DNA from: Bacillota bacterium
GTDB taxonomy: Bacteria; Bacillota; UBA4882; UBA10575
Reading direction: 5' to 3'
Assembly: GCA_012837715.1 (NCBI GenBank)
Contig: DUQR01000049.1
Coordinates: 1-57,247, forward strand
Length of the DNA: 57,247 nucleotides
In this document: positions 5,489 through 50,464 of the stretch, piece after piece
How the letters are laid out: every line of letters starts with the position of its first letter
Numbering within the stretch: the first letter of the stretch is position 1
The notes under the pieces: generated by a model
Databases searched by the model: none
What the model saw: the letters and a program-made list of their open reading frames with translations, nothing else
What the model was told of the DNA's origin: nothing
Position numbers and translations under genes: made by a program

Positions 5489-5557
5489 TCAAGAATTCAA
5501 GTCATCTGGAGAATACCATCCGGTTCCGGCTGGGTAATGCGGATCTCAAGGTAGAGG

Positions 5558-7578: not shown

Positions 7579-7674
7579 GAAGGATGATAGAGATTATTGT
7601 AAAATATTAATAATGCCACCACGAAGTGGTGAAAATATGAAACCGGGTGAGTTGACGAGCCTGGGCGGCCTGTT

Positions 7675-8599: not shown

Positions 8600-8902
8600 G
8601 ACAATCAACATATTTCGGCTGTGGCTTTTTTTATAGTCCGAAGTTAAGATTGATCCGGGGTTAAGTTTAATAAATGAAAGAAGGAGATATCCTAAGTTAA
8701 CAGAGAATTTTTGAAAGAGCTTCGGTTTATGCAGAATAAACGCGGCTTCTGGTGTCCCGATGGGCGCTGGGATGAATCAAACTTTTTGTGATGGAACCAA
8801 AAAGAAGAGGCCAGTGATATATTGTATTGGATTTGTTAAATCAAAGGACAACGCAAAAAGCCCAAACAGGGAAAGACAGAGGGTAGAGAAGGAGGTTATT
8901 GC
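8600..8902. other. Intergenic region between divergent pheA and vanX-like genes
   Basis: About 300 bases without a supported gene. It holds Family A repeat copy 2 (8782-8860). The remainder is AT-rich and shows no clear promoter for the vanX-like gene. Confidence 0.5.
8782..8860. repeat. Family A dispersed element, copy 2
   Basis: 79 bases, the same length as copy 1. Right end ACAACGCAAAAAG; left end CTTTTTGTGATGG is partly degenerate. The internal ATATATTGTATTGGA and AAAGGACAACGC segments match the reverse complement of copy 1. Confidence 0.65.
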
Positions 8903-14422: not shown

Positions 14423-15418
14423 GTGGTGACAATTAAAGATGTGGCTAAAGCGGCTGGGGTTTCACCGGCCACCGTTTCTTTGGCTTTGAATAATAACGAT
14501 AAAGTGAACCGGGAAACAAGAAAACGGGTGCAAGCGGTTGCTCGATCCTTAAATTATATCCCCAATGCCCGAGCTAAAGCTTTGGTTGAGAAGTCAACCA
14601 AAATAATTGGTCTGGTCATTCCTGAGATCCATAATCCCTTCTTCTCCGAAATGGCTCAGGCGATCAAGGATTATTTACAAGACTCGGATTACAGTATTAT
14701 TCTTTGTGGGACGGATAACAATCCGGACTTGGAAAGTAAATACATCAATATGTTCAAAGGCGGTCTGGTTGACGGGGCGATTTTCAGCTGTATAACCAAT
14801 GTCAACAATGAAGTCGTTCATGATCTGGCCCGGAACTACCTCCCCCTGGTCTACATCGATCGGGTTGCTGAAGATGAAGAAGTAATTCCGATGATCAAAT
14901 CGAATTTGGCAGAGGGGGCTTACCAATTAACAAGACATTTGCTGGACTTGGGCCACCGGAAAATCGCTTTTATTGGGCGGACCGATGAAGAAAGGTTCCA
15001 AGGCTATCTTAAGGGGATGCAAGAAGCCGGTTGTCCGGTGATCGAGTCTTATATTTTTGATCAAAGCTACACTTTTGACCAAGGGATTGCGGCGGGGAAA
15101 ACCTTGCTTACGCTACCAGAAAAGCCAACTGGGGTGGTCTGTTTCAATGACGAGGTAGCCCTTGGGTTAACCCAGTTTATGGTTAAAGCCGGGCGGAAAA
15201 TACCGACCGATCTCTCGGTCTGCGGGATTGATAATACGGTATCCAGGTATTATAATCCGGAGATTACCACTATTGATGTGCCCAAACAGGAAATGGGGAG
15301 AACCGCGGCCCGGCTTTTGCTGAAGATGATTAAGGGTGAAAAAATTCGAGCGGAAGAGCGTTTTATCCATTTTCCGGTTACTCTCATCAAACGGGATTCG
15401 ACAGCGCCGCCTAGGTAG
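14423..15418 (+). CDS. LacI-family transcriptional regulator
   Basis: A 331-residue regulator. The N-terminal HTH is TIKDVAKAAGVSPATVSLAL, followed by the hinge helix NARAKAL and a periplasmic-binding-protein-like sugar domain (IIGLVIPEIHNPFFSEMA to FPVTLIKRDS). GTG 14423 or the adjoining GTG 14426 is the start, with AGGAAGGA about ten bases upstream. The GH42 beta-galactosidase gene follows after 94 bases, so the inducer is probably a galactoside or a breakdown product. The two CG-centred palindromes upstream imply autoregulation of both genes. That assignment is inference. Confidence 0.92.
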   Translation: MVTIKDVAKAAGVSPATVSLALNNNDKVNRETRKRVQAVARSLNYIPNARAKALVEKSTKIIGLVIPEIHNPFFSEMAQAIKDYLQDSDYSIILCGTDNNPDLESKYINMFKGGLVDGAIFSCITNVNNEVVHDLARNYLPLVYIDRVAEDEEVIPMIKSNLAEGAYQLTRHLLDLGHRKIAFIGRTDEERFQGYLKGMQEAGCPVIESYIFDQSYTFDQGIAAGKTLLTLPEKPTGVVCFNDEVALGLTQFMVKAGRKIPTDLSVCGIDNTVSRYYNPEITTIDVPKQEMGRTAARLLLKMIKGEKIRAEERFIHFPVTLIKRDSTAPPR

Positions 15419-15459
15419 TCGCTCCCCCGGCAAGCTGGGGCCAGCGAAAAGATGAAAAT
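15416..15459 (+). repeat. Family B stop-codon hairpin, copy 1
   Basis: Begins with the TAG stop of the lacI gene: TAGTCGCTC, stem CCCC-GGCAAGCT-GGGG, then CCAGCGAAAAGATGAAAAT. The outer pair TCGCT/AGCGA also matches. It aligns with copies at 19576 and 30117. No T-run follows. Confidence 0.65.
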
Positions 15460-15512
15460 CAGTCGTACCCCAAAATGTCAAACCGAAGGTAAGCAAGGAC
15501 AGAGGAGAGGAG

Positions 15513-19518: not shown

Positions 19519-19575
19519 TTTTGGCATGGGAACTTTGATCAATTTTCGCTCATGATTACCGGGAAAAGGATTGGG

Positions 19576-19620
19576 TAGTTGCTCACTTCAACCAGTTGAG
19601 GCCAACGAAAGGGTGAAAAT
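19576..19620 (+). repeat. Family B hairpin, copy 2
   Basis: TAGTTGCTCA, stem CTTCAA-CCAG-TTGAGG, then CCAACGAAAGGGTGAAAAT. Compared with copy 1, the stem changes from CCCC/GGGG to CTTCAA/TTGAGG and the outer pair from TCGCT/AGCGA to GTTG/CAAC, so pairing is kept while sequence differs. Confidence 0.65.
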
Positions 19621-19639
19621 ATGCTGTACGGTACTTGCG

Positions 19640-19696
19640 AAGGCAAGTCATCCAGACGAGCGACGAGTAGCGCGCGACGAGCGTATTTTCTAAGGA
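19640..19696 (+). repeat. Family C tail repeat, copy 1
   Basis: AAGGCAAGTCATCCAGACGA-GCGACGAG ... ATTTTCTAAGG, directly after a Family B hairpin. It matches 40616-40665 (AAAGGCAATCATTCTCACGA-GCGGCGAG ... ATTTTCTAGG). Confidence 0.55.
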
Positions 19697-19957
19697 ACAT
19701 GGCAGGTATAAGCAACAGGATCAAGAATATAATAAGGCAACATTTTTAGGATTAATTTTTTGTGTTCTCCTTTGCCGTAATAATCCCAATCTAATGGTCT
19801 ATCATTAAACAGAAAAAGCTTTATCAAGCGGAGGGACAAGCCAAGGGGAAGCTGGCGCCAGCGGGGCGGATTTGGTTTTGTCATGATCCGCTTACCTTGA
19901 GAGGTCAGGGATTCGGAAGGGAAGAAAAGACCAGGAGGAAAGAAGGAGTGGAAGCGG

Positions 19958-20782
19958 ATGTCTTTCGTGGAATTGCTTAAGGCGGTCTTTTTAGGGATTG
20001 TGGAAGGAATAACGGAATGGCTGCCGATTAGTAGTACCGGCCATTTAATTTTAGTGGAGGAATTTATTCGCTTAAAGGCTTCGGCGGCTTTTAAGGAGAT
20101 GTTTACCGTTGTTATCCAGTTGGGGGCGATTTTAGCGGTAGTCCTTTTATACTTCCGGAAACTGAACCCTTTTGCCGCGACGAAAACAACAGAAGAAAAA
20201 GCAGCGACGTGGCGAATTTGGTTTAAGGTGATTGTGGGTGTACTCCCAGCCGGGGTGGTCGGGATCTTATTTGACGACTGGCTGAATGAACATTTCTATA
20301 ACTACTGGACGGTCGCGTTAATGCTGATTCTGTACGGGGTGCTTTTTATTCTGGTTGAGAATCGGAATAAAGGAAACGAAGGGAAAATCAAGAGTTTCGA
20401 GGCCCTTTCCTATGGGACCGCTTTTCAAATCGGTCTTTTCCAGGTCTTATCCTTAATTCCCGGAACCTCCCGCTCGGGAGCGACCATTTTGGGGGCGATC
20501 ATCCTTGGAACGTCGCGGAGTATAGCGGCGGAGTTTTCATTTTTCTTATCGATCCCAGTTATGTTTGGGGCCAGTTTCTTAAAGTTGCTCAAATTCGGCT
20601 TTGATTTCAGCGGGCTGGAGCTGGCCATTCTGTTAGTAGGCATGATTACCGCCTTTTTTGTTTCGGTGCTTGCCATCCGTTTTCTCCTTGCCTATATCAA
20701 GAAAAATGACTTCAAAGCCTTCGGTTGGTACCGGATCGTGCTCGGGCTCTTTCTGATCGGTTTCTTTGTCTTGGCCCGGTAG
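19958..20782 (+). CDS. uppP: Undecaprenyl-diphosphatase UppP (BacA)
   Basis: A 274-residue membrane phosphatase that dephosphorylates undecaprenyl diphosphate, recycling the lipid carrier for cell-wall synthesis; the family gives bacitracin tolerance. Both signature loops are present: [15 protein letters not shown] (residues 16-30) and [14 protein letters not shown] (about 168-181). About eight hydrophobic helices. ATG is preceded by AAGAAGGAGTGGAAGCGG. The TAG stop is the first three bases of a Family B hairpin. It converges with the glpQ-like gene. Confidence 0.95.
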
Positions 20783-20824
20783 TGCCGCTGGCTTCCGACA
20801 GCTGGAGCCAAGGGATCAAAATCG
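20780..20824 (+). repeat. Family B-like hairpin, copy 3, overlapping the uppP stop
   Basis: TAGTGCCGCT, stem GGCTTCC-GACAGCT-GGAGCC, then AAGGGATCAAAATCG. Its first three bases are the uppP stop codon. More divergent than the copies at 15416, 19576 and 30117. Confidence 0.5.
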
Positions 20825-21183
20825 AAGCCAGGTGGGGCGAGAAGCCCCATGCGTGCGGAATCCTGCCACGTTTTGAAATCGAAATCAACCTTCAGGCAGA
20901 ATAGTTGGCATGAGTAAAAGTGACATGAAAAAGAGAACGGAGGAGAGGCCGACATCCTGTCGGCCTCTAGATATGTAGGGGCGACTATAAAAACAGGCCA
21001 TTCCCGCTTCTGCGCCGATTGGCTAAAAAGCAAGCTTAAAACCGGCAACATCTACCAATTATGTAAAGCGGAAAAATCAGTGAAAAAAGCGAAGTTGCGG
21101 ATAGAATCAAGAAAGAGAATATAAGTAAATTTGTTAATACACAGGTCAAAGATTCTGTTTCTCGAAGATGAACGCATCGTGAA
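20825..21183. other. Gene-free region between convergent genes, with hairpins
   Basis: TGGGGC-GAGAA-GCCCCA at 20833-20849 and a 10-bp perfect stem AGAGGCCGAC/GTCGGCCTCT at 20944-20968. The latter could act as a bidirectional terminator, although it lacks T-runs. Nothing coding is supported. Confidence 0.5.
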
Positions 21184-30108: not shown

Positions 30109-30116
30109 CCTTCGGG

Positions 30117-30161
30117 TAGTCGTCCACCCCGGTAACTGGGGTAAAGCGAAAAACTGAAAAT
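30117..30161 (+). repeat. Family B hairpin, copy 4
   Basis: TAGTCGTCCA, stem CCCC-GGTAACT-GGGG, then TAAAGCGAAAAACTGAAAAT. It starts 8 bases after the lipoprotein stop codon and aligns without gaps with copy 2. Confidence 0.65.
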
Positions 30162-30202
30162 TGGCTGAAAACGACCGGCATTCCTGTTTAAAGGTGGAAC
30201 AG

Positions 30203-30687: not shown

Positions 30688-31154
30688 CAACAATCTTCCT
30701 CCAGTTCATTATCATTTTCCGGTATTTCTTGCTCCCGGCCTTTAAGCTCTAAACAGATCAGCTTGGGGGAAAGATCTACCTTAGCGGTATTTGAAGGATA
30801 CGCCTTACTTATTGACCGATCCTGCGTGCAAGGGGACTCTTCTGCACAGGTTTCACTTTTAAATAAAGTTTCTTAGTCTAACACAAAAAAACCTTCATAT
30901 TGTCAAAAATATTCCATCGTAAAATGTTCAATTACAAATTACACTATTTCAAAGCGGAAGGCCGAGCGATCCTTCTTGTGGAGTTTGAGGCTTTTAAAGT
31001 GGTTTTAGATGTGGGAGACGAGGAATAATGGGCCCGATCAAGATCTTGGATTTCAATTGATGAAGCCAAGGACAACGCAAAAGCCCAAAAGGAAAGGGAA
31101 TCCGGGAATAAGTCAAATGTTCATGTAAATGATGTTCATTGTGATTCAGCGCCG
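30688..31154. other. Gene-free region with coding-like scraps and a Family A end
   Basis: On the minus strand from about 30871 a stop-free frame (KAYPSNTAKVDLSPKLICLE ... ELEEDC) ends in TGA overlapping the mgsA ATG, but has no start codon. On the plus strand a 34-codon ATG frame lies at 30924-31028. A Family A right end (CCAAGGACAACGCAAAAGCCC) is at about 31066-31086. Confidence 0.4.
30924..31028 (+). CDS. Possible small protein of 34 residues
   Basis: ATG frame MFNYKLHYFKAEGRAILLVE followed by FEAFKVVLDVGDEE and TAA. The composition looks protein-like (alternating hydrophobic residues, acidic end), but there is no ribosome site before the ATG and no recognised family. It may be a remnant of a longer gene. 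Confidence 0.25.
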   Translation: MFNYKLHYFKAEGRAILLVEFEAFKVVLDVGDEE

Positions 31155-34353: not shown

Positions 34354-34679
34354 TTATTTATTCAGTCTATGATCCGGACGGGTTTTATCGTCCGTGCGCC
34401 ACTCCTGAATTTACCCGCTGCGGGTATGCTCTTCTTCAACTAGGTTACCCTATTCTTTCCGAGTTATTCTGTGCCAAAGCTAAGGAAGGGTAGGTTCTGG
34501 AGCGAATTGGCCGGCCCATCAAAGTTTTGGCGCTATAAGCATAAAAAGATCCCAATACAATATATCGTGTGCGGCTTGGATTAAGCGACCAATATATTGT
34601 ATTGGGATGATTAACGCAAAGGATACTCCCAACAGCCTCATTAGAAGGGCTGCTTATAAAAGACGGAAAGGTACGCTGT
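34354..34679. other. Intergenic region between the mcp and ger genes
   Basis: No gene supported. Contains the large palindrome at 34549-34608 and a short GGACG-based inverted repeat near 34376-34396. No clear sporulation-type promoter was identified for gerA. Confidence 0.45.
34549..34608. repeat. Family A-related palindrome
   Basis: 17-base perfect arms ATCCCAATACAATATAT / ATATATTGTATTGGGAT around a 26-base centre, followed by GATTAACGCAAAGG. The arms are the internal motif of Family A, here turned into the palindrome itself. Confidence 0.7.
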
Positions 34680-40564: not shown

Positions 40565-40600
40565 GCCGGGGCCGAATGGCGTACACCATTCGGCCCCGGC
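40565..40600 (+). terminator. Strong hairpin after the ABC genes
   Basis: 15-bp perfect stem GCCGGGGCCGAATGG / CCATTCGGCCCCGGC with a 6-base loop and no T-run. Followed by a Family C tail at 40616. Confidence 0.55.
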
Positions 40601-40615
40601 TTGGTGAATACCGGC

Positions 40616-40665
40616 AAAGGCAATCATTCTCACGAGCGGCGAGTGACGATCGGATTTTCTAGGTA
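40616..40665 (+). repeat. Family C tail repeat, copy 2
   Basis: AAAGGCAATCATTCTCACGA-GCGGCGAGTGACGATCGG-ATTTTCTAGG, similar to 19640-19696. In both places it follows a hairpin after a gene. Confidence 0.5.
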
Positions 40666-40761
40666 TTAAGGTAAACATTGGGTGGGATCGGGAGGGGAGA
40701 AGGGGAAGGGCGAGAATATAAATAGGGTGAGAGCGATTAACTTCGGAGAGGAGTGGGATTG

Positions 40762-41574
40762 ATGGCTCCTAGCGCCCAAGAATTGTTCTTTGCCTTTCTC
40801 CTTACTTTGCTTGCTGGTCTGTCCACAGGAATCGGAAGTATCTTGGCCTTCTATACCAAACAAACCAATAAACGGTTTTTATCGGTGACTCTGGGGTTTT
40901 CGGCCGGGGTTATGATCTATGTTTCAATGATTGAGATTTTTGCGAAAGCCCGGGCTTCATTAGAAACGGTTTATGGTCCCACCAAAGGACTTCTGGTCAC
41001 CACCATGGCTTTTTTTGCCGGTATTCTCCTGATTGCTTTGATTGATAAATTTGTGCCCGACGTGGAAAACCCCCATGCCATGCGGGGGGTGGAAGAGATG
41101 AGCGACCCTGATCCAGAGGAGCGGTCTTTACTCCGTATGGGACTGTTTTCCGCTTTAGCCATTGCCATTCATAATTTCCCCGAGGGGCTGGCTACTTTTG
41201 TCAGTGCGGTCCAGGATCCTACTTTAGGGATTAGTATCACCGTGGCGATTGCCCTCCACAATATCCCGGAAGGGCTGGCGGTTTCGGTGCCGGTTTATTT
41301 TGCCACTGGGAACCGGCGGAAAGCTTTTTTCTATTCGTTTTTGTCCGGGTTTTCCGAACCGATCGGCGCCATCGTTGGTTATTTCTTACTGATGAAGTTT
41401 TTCAGCCCGGCCCTGTTCGGACTGATCTTTGCCGGCGTGGCCGGAATCATGGTCTATATCTCCTTGGATGAGTTGCTACCGACCGCGGAGAAATACGGGG
41501 AGCATCATCTCGCCATCTATGGCTTAATCTCCGGAATGTTCGTAATGGCGTTAAGTTTGGTGCTCTTTGCCTGA
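40762..41574 (+). CDS. zupT: ZIP-family metal transporter ZupT, paralog 1
   Basis: A 270-residue membrane protein with eight helices for uptake of Zn2+ or other divalent metals. Metal-site motifs are in helix 4 (HNFPEGLATF) and helix 5 (HNIPEGLAVS). N-terminus LAGLSTGIGSILAFYTKQTN and C-terminus YISLDELLPTAEKYGEHH are typical of ZupT. ATG 40762 is nine bases after GGAGAGGA. A second gene of identical length, strongly similar, lies at 49652. Confidence 0.93.
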   Translation: MAPSAQELFFAFLLTLLAGLSTGIGSILAFYTKQTNKRFLSVTLGFSAGVMIYVSMIEIFAKARASLETVYGPTKGLLVTTMAFFAGILLIALIDKFVPDVENPHAMRGVEEMSDPDPEERSLLRMGLFSALAIAIHNFPEGLATFVSAVQDPTLGISITVAIALHNIPEGLAVSVPVYFATGNRRKAFFYSFLSGFSEPIGAIVGYFLLMKFFSPALFGLIFAGVAGIMVYISLDELLPTAEKYGEHHLAIYGLISGMFVMALSLVLFA

Positions 41575-41799
41575 TCCCGGGCCCGTGCTTTTTGGCTCCG
41601 GCTTGGTAGAGGCGGGTAAAAGTAATCTTTTATCCCAGGGATAAGTAGCGAGTGACCAGTGAGTAGAGCTCAATCTATTGGGCCCCCTTGTTATGGGTAA
41701 GGCAGGAAAGAAAGTCCTTTAGGTACTTGACTAGGAGAAACTTTCTGCTGTTTGCCGACATAAGCTGGAACATGGAACACTAACAAGGGGGGTTAGGTG

Positions 41800-43353
41800 A
41801 TGGTAACGCTTGAGAAATATTTGGACCCGTTACCCATCCCCGCAGTTCTTCAACCCAAGTACCGTAATAAAAAAGAGACTTACTATGAGGTCCAGATGCG
41901 GGCCGCCGCTCAATGTTTGCATTGCAAACTACCGAAGACCTTAATCTGGGGATACGAAGGGAAATATCCGGGGCCAGTGATTAATGTCCGCCGCGATGAG
42001 AAGGTCTTAATCAAATGGGAAAACCACTTACCGGAGAAGCATTTTCTACCGGTTGATAAATCTTTACATGGCTTGGCCGAGCTTCCGGAAGTCAGAACCG
42101 TTGTCCATCTCCATGGCGCCCGGGTGCGACCGGAGAGTGACGGGCATCCGGAAGCATGGTATACGTGGGATTTTACGGAGAGAGGTCCGTTTTTCAGCCG
42201 GGATGTTTACTGGTATCCCAACCGCCAACCGGCGGCTACGCTTTGGTATCATGATCATGCGATCGGGATTACCCGTTTAAATGTCTATGCCGGTTTGGCC
42301 GGTTTTTATTTCATTCGGGACAGCACAGAAAGGAAACTCAATCTCCCGCAGGGCCAATACGAGATCCCTCTGCTCATCCAGGACCGTTCCTTCAATCCTG
42401 ACGGGTCGCTATTTTATCCTCGCCAACCGGACCCGCCAAACCCTGAGATTGATCCCTGCATCACCCCGGGTGTGGACGGGGATACCATCTTAGTGAACGG
42501 AAAGGTATGGCCATATTTAGAAGTGGAACCGCGTAAATATCGCTTCCGGGTTTTGAATGGTTCCAACCACCGGTTTTACCGGATAAAACTTGATCCGGAA
42601 CTTCCTTTCTACCAGATTGGGACAGACGGCGGTTTCTTACCCGCACCGGTTAAGCTCAAGGAATTGGTGATTGCCCCAGCCGAACGGGCTGATTTGATTG
42701 TTAATTTTGCCCATTTGCACGGAAAGAACTTAATCCTGCGGAATGATGCGCCTGTTCCATTCCCCAACGGCACACCCGTTGATCCGGAAACCACCGGCCA
42801 AATCATGGAGTTCAGGGTAGTCTTACCCCTTCAACAGGAAGATAAAAGCTCCTTGCCGGATGAACTTGTGCCCGTGCCCCGGCTGGACCAAAACTTGGTA
42901 AAAGTCCGGCGGAATCTCAGTATGGTTGTCCAACGGGATGAGTTTGGACGCTTACTTTTTTTGCTTAATGGGGAAAAATGGCATGATCCGGTGACCGAAG
43001 AACCCCGCCGGGGTGGAGTGGAAATCGGGAATTTGATCAATCCCGGTTTTGTGTCCCACCCTATCCATCTGCACCAGGTTCAATTTCAAATTTTGAATCG
43101 TCAACCCTTTGACGTCGCCCATTATAACCGGACCGGGGAGCTTATTTTCACCGGGCCGCCGGAACTACCCGACCACAATGAACAGGGATGGAAAGACACC
43201 GTCCGGAGCAAGCCGGGGGAAGTTACGCGGATTATTATCCAATTCGGACCCTATACCGGGCAGTACCCCTGGCATTGTCATCTCTTAGAGCATGAGGATT
43301 ATGATATGATGCGCCCGTTTACGGTTCTTAGCAAAAAAAGCAAGAAGGAGTAA
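41800..43353 (+). CDS. cotA: CotA-like multicopper oxidase (spore-coat laccase type)
   Basis: A 517-residue laccase/bilirubin-oxidase-like protein without signal peptide, as for CotA. Copper sites: TVVHLHGARV (HxH), WYHDHAIGITRLNVYAGLAG (HxH), HPIHLHQVQF (type 1/3) and WHCHLLEHEDYDMM (HCHxxxH plus axial Met). CotA-type features include PFMDPLPIP-like NPLPIP region (LDPLPIPAVL) and KWENHLP. It oxidises phenolic substrates with O2 and in Bacillus pigments the spore coat. ATG 41800 has AAGGGGGG seven bases upstream. Monocistronic. Confidence 0.92.
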   Translation: MVTLEKYLDPLPIPAVLQPKYRNKKETYYEVQMRAAAQCLHCKLPKTLIWGYEGKYPGPVINVRRDEKVLIKWENHLPEKHFLPVDKSLHGLAELPEVRTVVHLHGARVRPESDGHPEAWYTWDFTERGPFFSRDVYWYPNRQPAATLWYHDHAIGITRLNVYAGLAGFYFIRDSTERKLNLPQGQYEIPLLIQDRSFNPDGSLFYPRQPDPPNPEIDPCITPGVDGDTILVNGKVWPYLEVEPRKYRFRVLNGSNHRFYRIKLDPELPFYQIGTDGGFLPAPVKLKELVIAPAERADLIVNFAHLHGKNLILRNDAPVPFPNGTPVDPETTGQIMEFRVVLPLQQEDKSSLPDELVPVPRLDQNLVKVRRNLSMVVQRDEFGRLLFLLNGEKWHDPVTEEPRRGGVEIGNLINPGFVSHPIHLHQVQFQILNRQPFDVAHYNRTGELIFTGPPELPDHNEQGWKDTVRSKPGEVTRIIIQFGPYTGQYPWHCHLLEHEDYDMMRPFTVLSKKSKKE

Positions 43354-43354
43354 G

Positions 43355-43387
43355 TAGTCGCTTGGCACGGGCTTATTGCCAGGATAA
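43355..43387 (+). repeat. Family B-like hairpin, copy 5
   Basis: TAGTCGCTTGGCA-CGGGCTTAT-TGCCAGGATAA, one base after the cotA stop. It shares the TAGTCGCT head with copy 1, and the stem TTGGCA/TGCCAG keeps pairing. Confidence 0.45.
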
Positions 43388-43469: not shown

Positions 43470-43759
43470 AATTTGACAAAAAAAGGCGAGGAAGGGGAAG
43501 AGTACTTACCGCGTGGCGCCTGGCAGAGAATCCGGGAGGGTGGAAACCGGGTAGGTGGGCGGTGGGGAAGAACACCCCGGAGCAGCCACCCGAAACGGCG
43601 TCTGATGAAGGACAACCGGAGTAGACGTGGACGGAACCTTTACCGTTAAAAAAAGGCAACCGTGGAAAAGACGCGGATTGTGTTATGAGTGAACCGTATT
43701 TGGTTAAGATGGGTGGTACCGCGAGCAAAGTCTCGTCCCTCAAGGGGCGGGACTTTTTC
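43470..43759 (+). promoter_or_regulatory. T-box riboswitch (Asn, possibly also Glu)
   Basis: A tRNA-sensing leader of about 290 bases. Visible: AGTA in the specifier-loop 5' strand (43501), CAGAGAA and GGTGGAAACC of distal stem I (43523-43548), the specifier region GGAAGAACACCCC (43566-43578), and the T-box proper TGGTACCGCG (43714-43723) that pairs with the uncharged tRNA acceptor end. It ends in the terminator 43729-43759 (GTCTCGTCCCT-CAA-GGGGCGGGAC plus T-run). AAC followed by A just before the lower stem is the best specifier (Asn); GAA (Glu) overlaps it by two bases. This fits control of indirect Asn/Gln-tRNA formation. Confidence 0.88.
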
Positions 43760-49494: not shown

Positions 49495-49651
49495 TTAATC
49501 CAAAAAGAAACGGGCATTATAGCCCCGGGCTCAGCCTTTAAGGGAGATCGCAGTATTTTATGGGAATTATAAGGGGTTGTTTTTATGGCGTAGTGCAAAA
49601 AGCAGATCAACAAGTCAAGTTGCAGAAATTATTGACGAAAGGAGCGAGAGT

Positions 49652-50464
49652 ATGCCCTTCACGACGGCTAATTTATTGTTTGCGTTTGGTTTGACCTTAA
49701 TGGCCGGTCTGTCAACGGGAATCGGAAGTCTCCTGGCCTTTTATGCTAAACAGACGAATAAAAAATTCCTCTCGGTTGCCTTAGGTTTTTCGGCGGGAGT
49801 AATGATTTATGTTTCGATGGTTGAGATCTTTGCGGAAGCCCGGGCTTCTTTGGAAGCGGTCTATGGGTCTACGAAAGGTTATTGGGCGACGACCATTGCC
49901 TTTTTCACTGGGATTGCGATTATTGCGCTGATTGATAAAATTGTCCCCAGTCCTGAAAATCCCCATGACATGCAAAGTAAAGAAGACGTTGAAGAAATGA
50001 AGACCAATGATCCGGCTTTATTACGATTGGGCCTTTTTTCGGCGTTGGCCATTGCCATCCACAATTTCCCCGAAGGAATTGCCACTTTTGCCAGTGCGGT
50101 TAAAGATCCGACTTTAGGAATTAGTATTGCGATCGCGATTGCCATTCATAATTTACCGGAAGGAATTGCGGTTTCCATTCCGGTTTATTACGCGACCGGG
50201 AGCCGGCGAAAAGCCCTTTTTTACTCTTTTGTTTCGGGTTTTTCCGAACCACTGGGGGCCATCCTCGGTTATTTTCTCCTGTTGCGTTACTTTAGTGATG
50301 CGATGTTTGGGTGGATCTTTGCCGCGGTCGCTGGAATTATGGTTTACATATCTTTAGATGAATTACTCCCGACGGCTGAGAAATACGGTGAACACCATTA
50401 TGCCATCTACGGGCTGATCCTCGGTATGGTCGTGATGGCGATTAGCCTCTTAATGTTTGCGTAA
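49652..50464 (+). CDS. zupT: ZIP-family metal transporter ZupT, paralog 2
   Basis: A 270-residue protein, exactly the length of the gene at 40762 and strongly similar throughout (LAFYAKQTNKKFLSV, ALGFSAGVMIYVSMVEIFAE). Metal motifs HNFPEGIATF and HNLPEGIAVS. They differ mainly in the loop after helix 3 (SKEDVEEMKTNDPALL versus GVEEMSDPDPEERSLL), a likely regulatory or selectivity loop. ATG 49652 with AAAGGAG upstream; the longer frame from 49577 has no ribosome site. Suggests duplication with divergent metal preference or regulation. Confidence 0.92.
   Translation: MPFTTANLLFAFGLTLMAGLSTGIGSLLAFYAKQTNKKFLSVALGFSAGVMIYVSMVEIFAEARASLEAVYGSTKGYWATTIAFFTGIAIIALIDKIVPSPENPHDMQSKEDVEEMKTNDPALLRLGLFSALAIAIHNFPEGIATFASAVKDPTLGISIAIAIAIHNLPEGIAVSIPVYYATGSRRKALFYSFVSGFSEPLGAILGYFLLLRYFSDAMFGWIFAAVAGIMVYISLDELLPTAEKYGEHHYAIYGLILGMVVMAISLLMFA

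What the first reader, a model, noticed from the sequence alone, without database searches (positions are those of the whole stretch)
15416..15459. Stop-codon-proximal hairpin family with compensating stem changes (Family B)
Copies at 15416-15459, 19576-19620 and 30117-30161 align almost without gaps: TAGTYG..., a GC or mixed stem, then AGCGAAAA..TGAAAAT. Looser members lie at 20780-20824 and 43355-43387. Stems differ (CCCC/GGGG, CTTCAA/TTGAGG) but stay paired, and the outer pair changes from TCGCT/AGCGA to GTTG/CAAC. Most begin at or within 8 bases of a gene's stop codon; two use the TAG itself. They lack T-runs, so they are not ordinary intrinsic terminators. Covariation suggests a selected RNA structure, perhaps a 3'-end stabiliser, processing site or protein-binding element; one lies inside the lacI-GH42 operon.
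Basis: partly seen in the sequence, partly recalled or inferred. Interest (0 to 1): 0.62.

Follow-up and report, generated by a model that had tools for sequence, protein, structure and literature searches.

The report
GTAG-tagged mobile repeats at gene ends
The hairpins are pieces of a short DNA repeat that has inserted itself at dozens of places in this bacterium and its close relatives, often at stop-codon-like sites, so they look like a REP-type mobile repeat rather than a dedicated RNA signal at gene ends.

Summary
The three core copies (15414-15459, 19574-19620, 30115-30161) are real and related, but they are not free-standing RNA hairpins. They are the 5' module of a modular interspersed repeat of about 130-175 bp. 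The host genome holds 46 BLAST matches to the type-1 form and 14 to the type-2 form, to which these copies belong; 19574-19694 is a near full-length type-2 copy. The family is essentially confined to one GTDB family, with match numbers that differ between species of the genus. Empty sites show insertion: eleven relatives have an uninterrupted rplE-rpsN junction where this genome has an insert, and tkt, L043 and lacI-GH42 agree. The insertion target is about YTAR^GTA, so stop codons TAA/TAG followed by G can serve as targets, and the repeat's TAG became the lacI stop. An unpaired GTAG beside a hairpin and TAG-supplied stops match GTAG REP elements. However, no Y1/RAYT, IS110 or TnpB gene was found in this genome or its genus, and the units are longer than REPs. 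Covariation is modest in type 2 and nearly absent in type 1. A sense-strand bias (37:13) is only partly explained. Best reading: a new REP-like non-autonomous repeat family in a Bacillota lineage, mobiliser unknown.

The parts
15414..15462 (+). Type-2 5' module (GTAG tag + hairpin + TGAAAAT) between lacI and GH42; its TAG at 15416-15418 is the lacI stop codon
   Evidence: BLAST to type-2 consensus 15413-15462, 92%, E 2e-15; model R1 65.1 bits (model built from it); LacI and GH42 by Pfam
19574..19697 (+). Near full-length type-2 element, ending TATTTTCTAAGG
   Evidence: BLAST 19574-19694, 77%, E 1e-23; 72% to the L008 copy
30115..30167 (+). Type-2 5' module, 7 nt after the stop of an FGE-sulfatase-domain gene
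   Evidence: BLAST E 4e-5; R1 62.2 bits (model built from it)
20778..20849 (+). Type-1 5' module; its TAG at 20780-20782 is the stop of the bacA/uppP gene
   Evidence: BLAST 20786-20849, 82%, E 4e-12
7622..7669 (+). Type-1 fragment (inner part of the 5' module)
   Evidence: BLAST 77%, E 5e-5
40583..40665 (+). Type-3 module with the common right end TTTTCT, between an ABC-transporter gene and a ZIP-transporter gene
   Evidence: BLAST to a hand-made type-3 consensus, 80%, E 4e-15
41594..41630 (+). Type-3 fragment
   Evidence: BLAST 78%, E 9e-4
5511..5542 (+). Possible type-3 fragment
   Evidence: BLAST 85% over 33 nt, E 3e-4
43352..43387 (+). Doubtful degenerate copy after a multicopper oxidase gene
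   Evidence: Only 11 exact bases AAGTAGTCGCT match the consensus, E 3.9; fold no better than shuffles

Best explanation
Family B is the 5' module of a lineage-specific, non-autonomous mobile repeat. The full element is about 130-175 bp: an unpaired GTAG tag, a 5' hairpin module, a middle or 3' hairpin, and the right end TTTTCTAR. It inserts at a short target close to YTAR^GTA. Shown: dispersal, modularity, head-to-tail tandems, empty sites in relatives, a shared target-like motif at both ends. Copies can therefore land on TAA/TAG stop codons followed by G, or in the stop-to-Shine-Dalgarno spacer inside operons, and sometimes supply the stop codon themselves. Inferred: it was moved as folded single-stranded DNA by a Y1/HUH-type enzyme using GTAG as guide and cutting at CT/CA, as proposed for REP elements; that enzyme is not found in this genome now, so the copies here are old. 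Any effect on mRNA would be secondary.
For: 46 and 14 genome matches to the two forms. In the 101-genome search 12 of the 13 genomes with a match are in the window's GTDB family (own genome included) and numbers differ within the genus. Empty sites: rplE-rpsN uninterrupted in 11 of 11 relatives; tkt, L043, L038 and lacI-GH42 likewise lack the insert in the relatives aligned. Ends: left YYAR|GTAG, right TTTTCTA|RGTAG, random outside. Tandems L029/L013, L075, L092. GTAG REPs are reported to supply TAG stops and to sit just after ORF ends (PMC3733652); GTAG as guide for CT/CA cleavage (PMC8266576). Best copy-to-copy identity 90% here, 92-95% in G011/G012.
Against: No Y1_Tnp match in this genome or any congener, so the mobiliser is inferred, not shown. 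On gene ends not chosen for insertions, the target motif is only weakly sense-oriented (5:0 in own genome, 3:2 in relatives), so the sense bias of 37:13 is not fully accounted for. The three short window copies lack a recognisable 3' end, so they are read as truncated or decayed.
Confidence: 0.82

Rival explanations
1. One reading: a selected cis-acting RNA element at mRNA 3' ends (exonuclease barrier, processing site or protein-binding site) kept for the host's benefit.
For: Sense bias 37:13 between collinear genes and 22 of 50 sense copies within 15 nt of a stop; modest covariation in type 2; more G-U than A-C among imperfect pairs on the sense strand (biased by using one sequence's fold). 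REPs within 15 nt of a stop are reported to lower translation in E. coli (PMC12306157).
Against: Orthologous gene ends in relatives lack it; type 1 shows one compensated pair of 15 and a positive covariation term; it continues into a longer dispersed repeat with its own right end; no Rfam family.
Confidence: 0.1
2. A MITE of a DDE-type insertion sequence, with a 3-bp target duplication GTA.
For: GTA flanks both ends at sites with a known empty state (rplE-rpsN, tkt, L043), so a 3-bp duplication cannot be told from a no-duplication insertion; size about 170 bp; non-coding.
Against: The ends are direct, not inverted, repeats (YTARGTAG at both); head-to-tail tandems join end to start without spacer.
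Confidence: 0.2
3. An IS110-like system in which the repeat is a bridge-RNA-type unit moved in trans.
For: Structured non-coding unit of about 170 nt whose end-to-start junction resembles its target.
Against: No IS110 transposase domain in G000-G010; no Rfam match on full copies.
Confidence: 0.03

Closest known systems
GTAG-tagged REP elements with RAYT/TnpA-REP (PMC3733652, PMC8266576)
   Same: Unpaired GTAG directly 5' of an imperfect hairpin; many dispersed copies; mostly just after ORF ends; TAG of the tag supplies stop codons; C[T/A] often found just before the tag, the dinucleotides TnpA-REP cuts.
   Different: Units of 130-175 bp with several modules instead of 20-40 bp; chains head-to-tail; no RAYT found; in a Bacillota lineage, a phylum not among those the 2013 survey lists for GTAG repeats.
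Pneumococcal BOX elements (PMC3049150)
   Same: Modular composite repeat with fixed end modules and variable inner modules, structured, intergenic, transposase uncertain.
   Different: No sequence link tested; different end sequences; the GTAG tag and YTAR^GTA target were not reported in what I read.
IS200/IS605 ends and their non-autonomous derivatives
   Same: Hairpin ends, a short target that becomes the left flank, a right end that resembles the target, and insertion into the end of an earlier copy.
   Different: No Y1 transposase or TnpB in the host; no longer element with these ends and a gene was found.

Membership tests
GTAG REP element | GTAG tag 5' of a hairpin | tested here: met
   48 left ends: G 0.92, T 0.81, A 0.88, G 0.85, followed by the stem; GTAG unpaired in predicted folds of type 2
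GTAG REP element | 20-40 bp palindromic unit | tested here: not met
   Type-2 hairpin is about 30 nt, but conserved units run 130-175 bp with a common right end
GTAG REP element | RAYT/Y1 transposase associated with the repeats | tested here: not met
   No Y1_Tnp in G000-G008; one broken copy in G012 without recognisable repeats beside it. RAYT loss is known in E. coli strains
GTAG REP element | Location just after ORFs, TAG supplying stops | tested here: met
   22 of 50 sense copies within 15 nt of a stop; lacI, bacA/uppP and others use the repeat's TAG
GTAG REP element | Frequent pairs in opposite orientation (BIME-like) | tested here: inconclusive
   The tandems read are head-to-tail; inverted pairs were not counted systematically
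DDE MITE | Terminal inverted repeats | tested here: not met
   Both ends carry YTARGTAG in the same direction
DDE MITE | Target-site duplication | tested here: inconclusive
   At most GTA; ambiguous because element and target share it
Known structured RNA family | Match to a curated covariance model | tested here: not met
   Only an unrelated T-box in the window; nothing relevant on full copies
IS110 / bridge RNA | DEDD IS110 transposase in the host | tested here: not met
   No PF01548 match in G000-G010

The most novel reading that the evidence does not exclude
A family of modular GTAG-tagged hairpin repeats that inserts at stop-codon-like sites and is moved by an enzyme that is neither a Y1/RAYT transposase nor any known repeat mobiliser, still active in some relatives.
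Probability: 0.15. Interest if true: 0.7.

Novelty: new variant of a known kind. Interest (0 to 1): 0.4.

Why it matters
It adds a REP-like repeat family to a Bacillota lineage; the 2013 GTAG survey did not list this phylum. It also gives clear empty-site evidence for insertion, down to inserts between rplE and rpsN and in a transketolase gene end. It warns that gene-end hairpin families can look like RNA regulatory elements when they are inserted repeats. With no recognisable transposase and plentiful presence/absence differences between species of one genus, the question of what moves such repeats becomes testable here.

Tried and rejected
Rfam on the window and on full copies: nothing relevant. 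Tight DNA patterns on the own genome found only known copies. RAYT/IS200, IS110 and TnpB tested as mobilisers and not found in the genus; the Y1 genes of relatives that were read have no recognisable copies beside them. No match in plasmids, phages or viral contigs. An 18-mer scan of named genomes gave one chance-like hit (Fibrella) and four unclassified Bacillota records. RNAalifold on 18 type-1 copies did not support strong covariation. A first count of the target motif at gene ends (11 sense, 0 antisense) was circular, because it used loci fetched as insertion sites; on unselected gene ends it falls to 5:0 and 3:2, so I withdrew the claim that the target alone explains the sense bias. A DGR hairpin was considered for 30115 (FGE-sulfatase gene upstream) and set aside because the same repeat follows unrelated genes; no reverse-transcriptase search was run.

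Full report
What was checked. The three core copies exist as described and begin two bases earlier than stated, with GGTAG. A covariance model built from them scores them at 60-65 bits and finds further copies in the 2.4-Mb genome at C4, C29, C20, C18, C27 and elsewhere. Reading those places showed that the similarity runs well past the hairpin into conserved sequence. The finding is therefore the left end of a longer repeat.

Anatomy. Type 1 (hand-made consensus, 174 nt) reads AAGTAGTCGCTCACGCTGGCTACCGCC...GATGAAAAT...AGCCAGGTGAGTCGAC...GGTTGTTCATGCCGACT...AGTCGGGTGAACAACTTAAGCTATTTTCTAAGTAG, a 5' hairpin module and a 3' hairpin module. Type 2, to which the finding belongs, has the shorter hairpin GTAGTCGCTCACCCCAGCAAGCTGGGGCAAGCGAAAGGATGAAAAT, then GCGAAGGCAAGTCATTCACACGAGCGACGAG and the same right end GATTTTCTAAGTAG. 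A third module shares the right end. Modules recombine and chain head-to-tail; in relative G011 a type-1 unit is followed directly by a type-2 unit between two genes that read as mutM- and coaE-like from their translation (L092). The own genome has 46 and 14 BLAST matches to types 1 and 2. The window holds one near full-length type-2 copy, two type-2 5' modules, two type-1 pieces and about three type-3 pieces.

Distribution. Of 101 genomes searched, 13 have a match; 12 of them, the own genome included, belong to the window's GTDB family (G004 and G014 weakly), and one weak match lies outside it. Numbers differ within the genus: G003 has none at the threshold while G001 and G006 have ten matches with only 8 of 78 and 50 candidates scored. 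Named matches are unclassified Bacillota records. There is no match in plasmids, phages or viral contigs.

Insertion, shown by empty sites. At rplE-rpsN all eleven relatives searched align straight through a joined-flank query. Nine junctions were printed: six read TCCTAAGTAAAGGAGG and three are close variants, while this genome has TCCTAAGTAGTGGC...TTTTCTTTAGTAGGAGGG with two units between. At the transketolase-like gene relatives keep CTCGGTTTAGGTAGTTT (or close to it) in the last codons; here the element starts at that TTAGGTAGTT and the protein end changes. At L043 relatives have CTCAGAGTAAGGGG or close to it, and this genome CTCAGAGTAGAAC...TTTTCTAAGTAAGGGG. At lacI-GH42 two relatives lack the repeat; in G004 LacI ends ...CCGGCCGGTTCGGCGTAA where this genome reads ...CCGCCTAGGTAG, so the repeat's TAG became the lacI stop.

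Target and placement. The conserved block at the left is YYAR|GTAG and at the right TTTTCTA|RGTAG, with no consensus outside. With the empty sites this gives a target close to YTAR^GTA, so a stop codon TAA/TAG followed by G can be a target. Copies abut stops often: 22 of 50 copies with a sense gene upstream lie within 15 nt of its stop, against 0 of 23 with an antisense gene upstream. Collinear neighbours are mostly in sense, 37 against 13, P 0.0009. ORFs in this census were called mechanically, so single assignments may be wrong. I first thought the target alone explained the sense bias, but that count used loci chosen as insertion sites. On unselected gene ends the motif is rare and only weakly sense-oriented, 5:0 in the own genome and 3:2 in relatives. 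The bias may also reflect selection against antisense insertions or some RNA-level effect; this is open.

Structure. Type-2 copies keep their pairs slightly better than shuffles (87.6 against 83.1%, 2 of 500), with four pairs changed on both sides, which 68 of 500 shuffles match. Type-1 hairpins are conserved mostly in sequence, with one compensated pair of 15. G-U exceeds A-C among imperfect pairs on the sense strand, 135 against 61, but the pairs were taken from one sequence's fold. A need for a folded top strand, as DNA during mobilisation or as RNA, fits; a strong case for RNA selection does not follow.

Mechanism. GTAG beside a hairpin, and CT or CA often found in the left flank, recall REP elements and their Y1 nucleases, for which GTAG is proposed to guide cutting at CT or CA (PMC8266576). 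GTAG REPs are known to supply TAG stops to upstream genes (PMC3733652). This step is inference. Y1_Tnp was not found in this genome or its genus, nor IS110 or TnpB. Among the copies compared, the best identity is 90% in this genome and 92-95% in G011 and G012, which suits a family that is old here and was active more recently in relatives. The assemblies are drafts, and a transposase gene could be missing from them.

Verdict. Real, but not best read as a dedicated 3'-end RNA signal: it is a new REP-like mobile repeat family. It works like a GTAG REP in tag, placement and stop-codon use. It is not filed as a REP because unit length and RAYT association were tested and not met.

Noticed in passing
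43480-43743 +: T-box leader (RF00230, 111.8 bits) shortly after the doubtful copy at 43355.
   Followed up: no
8819-8866, 31043-31090, 34594-34641: Another dispersed repeat, ATATTGTATTGG...CAAAGGACAACGCAAAAAGCCCAAA; similar words TATTGTACTGGAATT occur in L053.
   Followed up: no
40753-41574 and 49577-50464: Two copies of a ZIP-transporter gene region, 73-74% identical in DNA (for the first copy).
   Followed up: no
40567-40603: Strong palindrome CCGGGGCCGAATGG-CGTACA-CCATTCGGCCCCGG directly before or in the type-3 module.
   Followed up: no
L074 7414-7586 and L075 5730-5902: Two records under different names carry the same repeat and flank; one contig ends exactly at the repeat's right end, so such repeats break draft assemblies.
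   Followed up: partly
L093 against L104: Repeat pieces in different genera (G012, G001) are 93% identical, while rplE-rpsN of G012 and G000 is 82%: recent spread, transfer or constraint.
   Followed up: no
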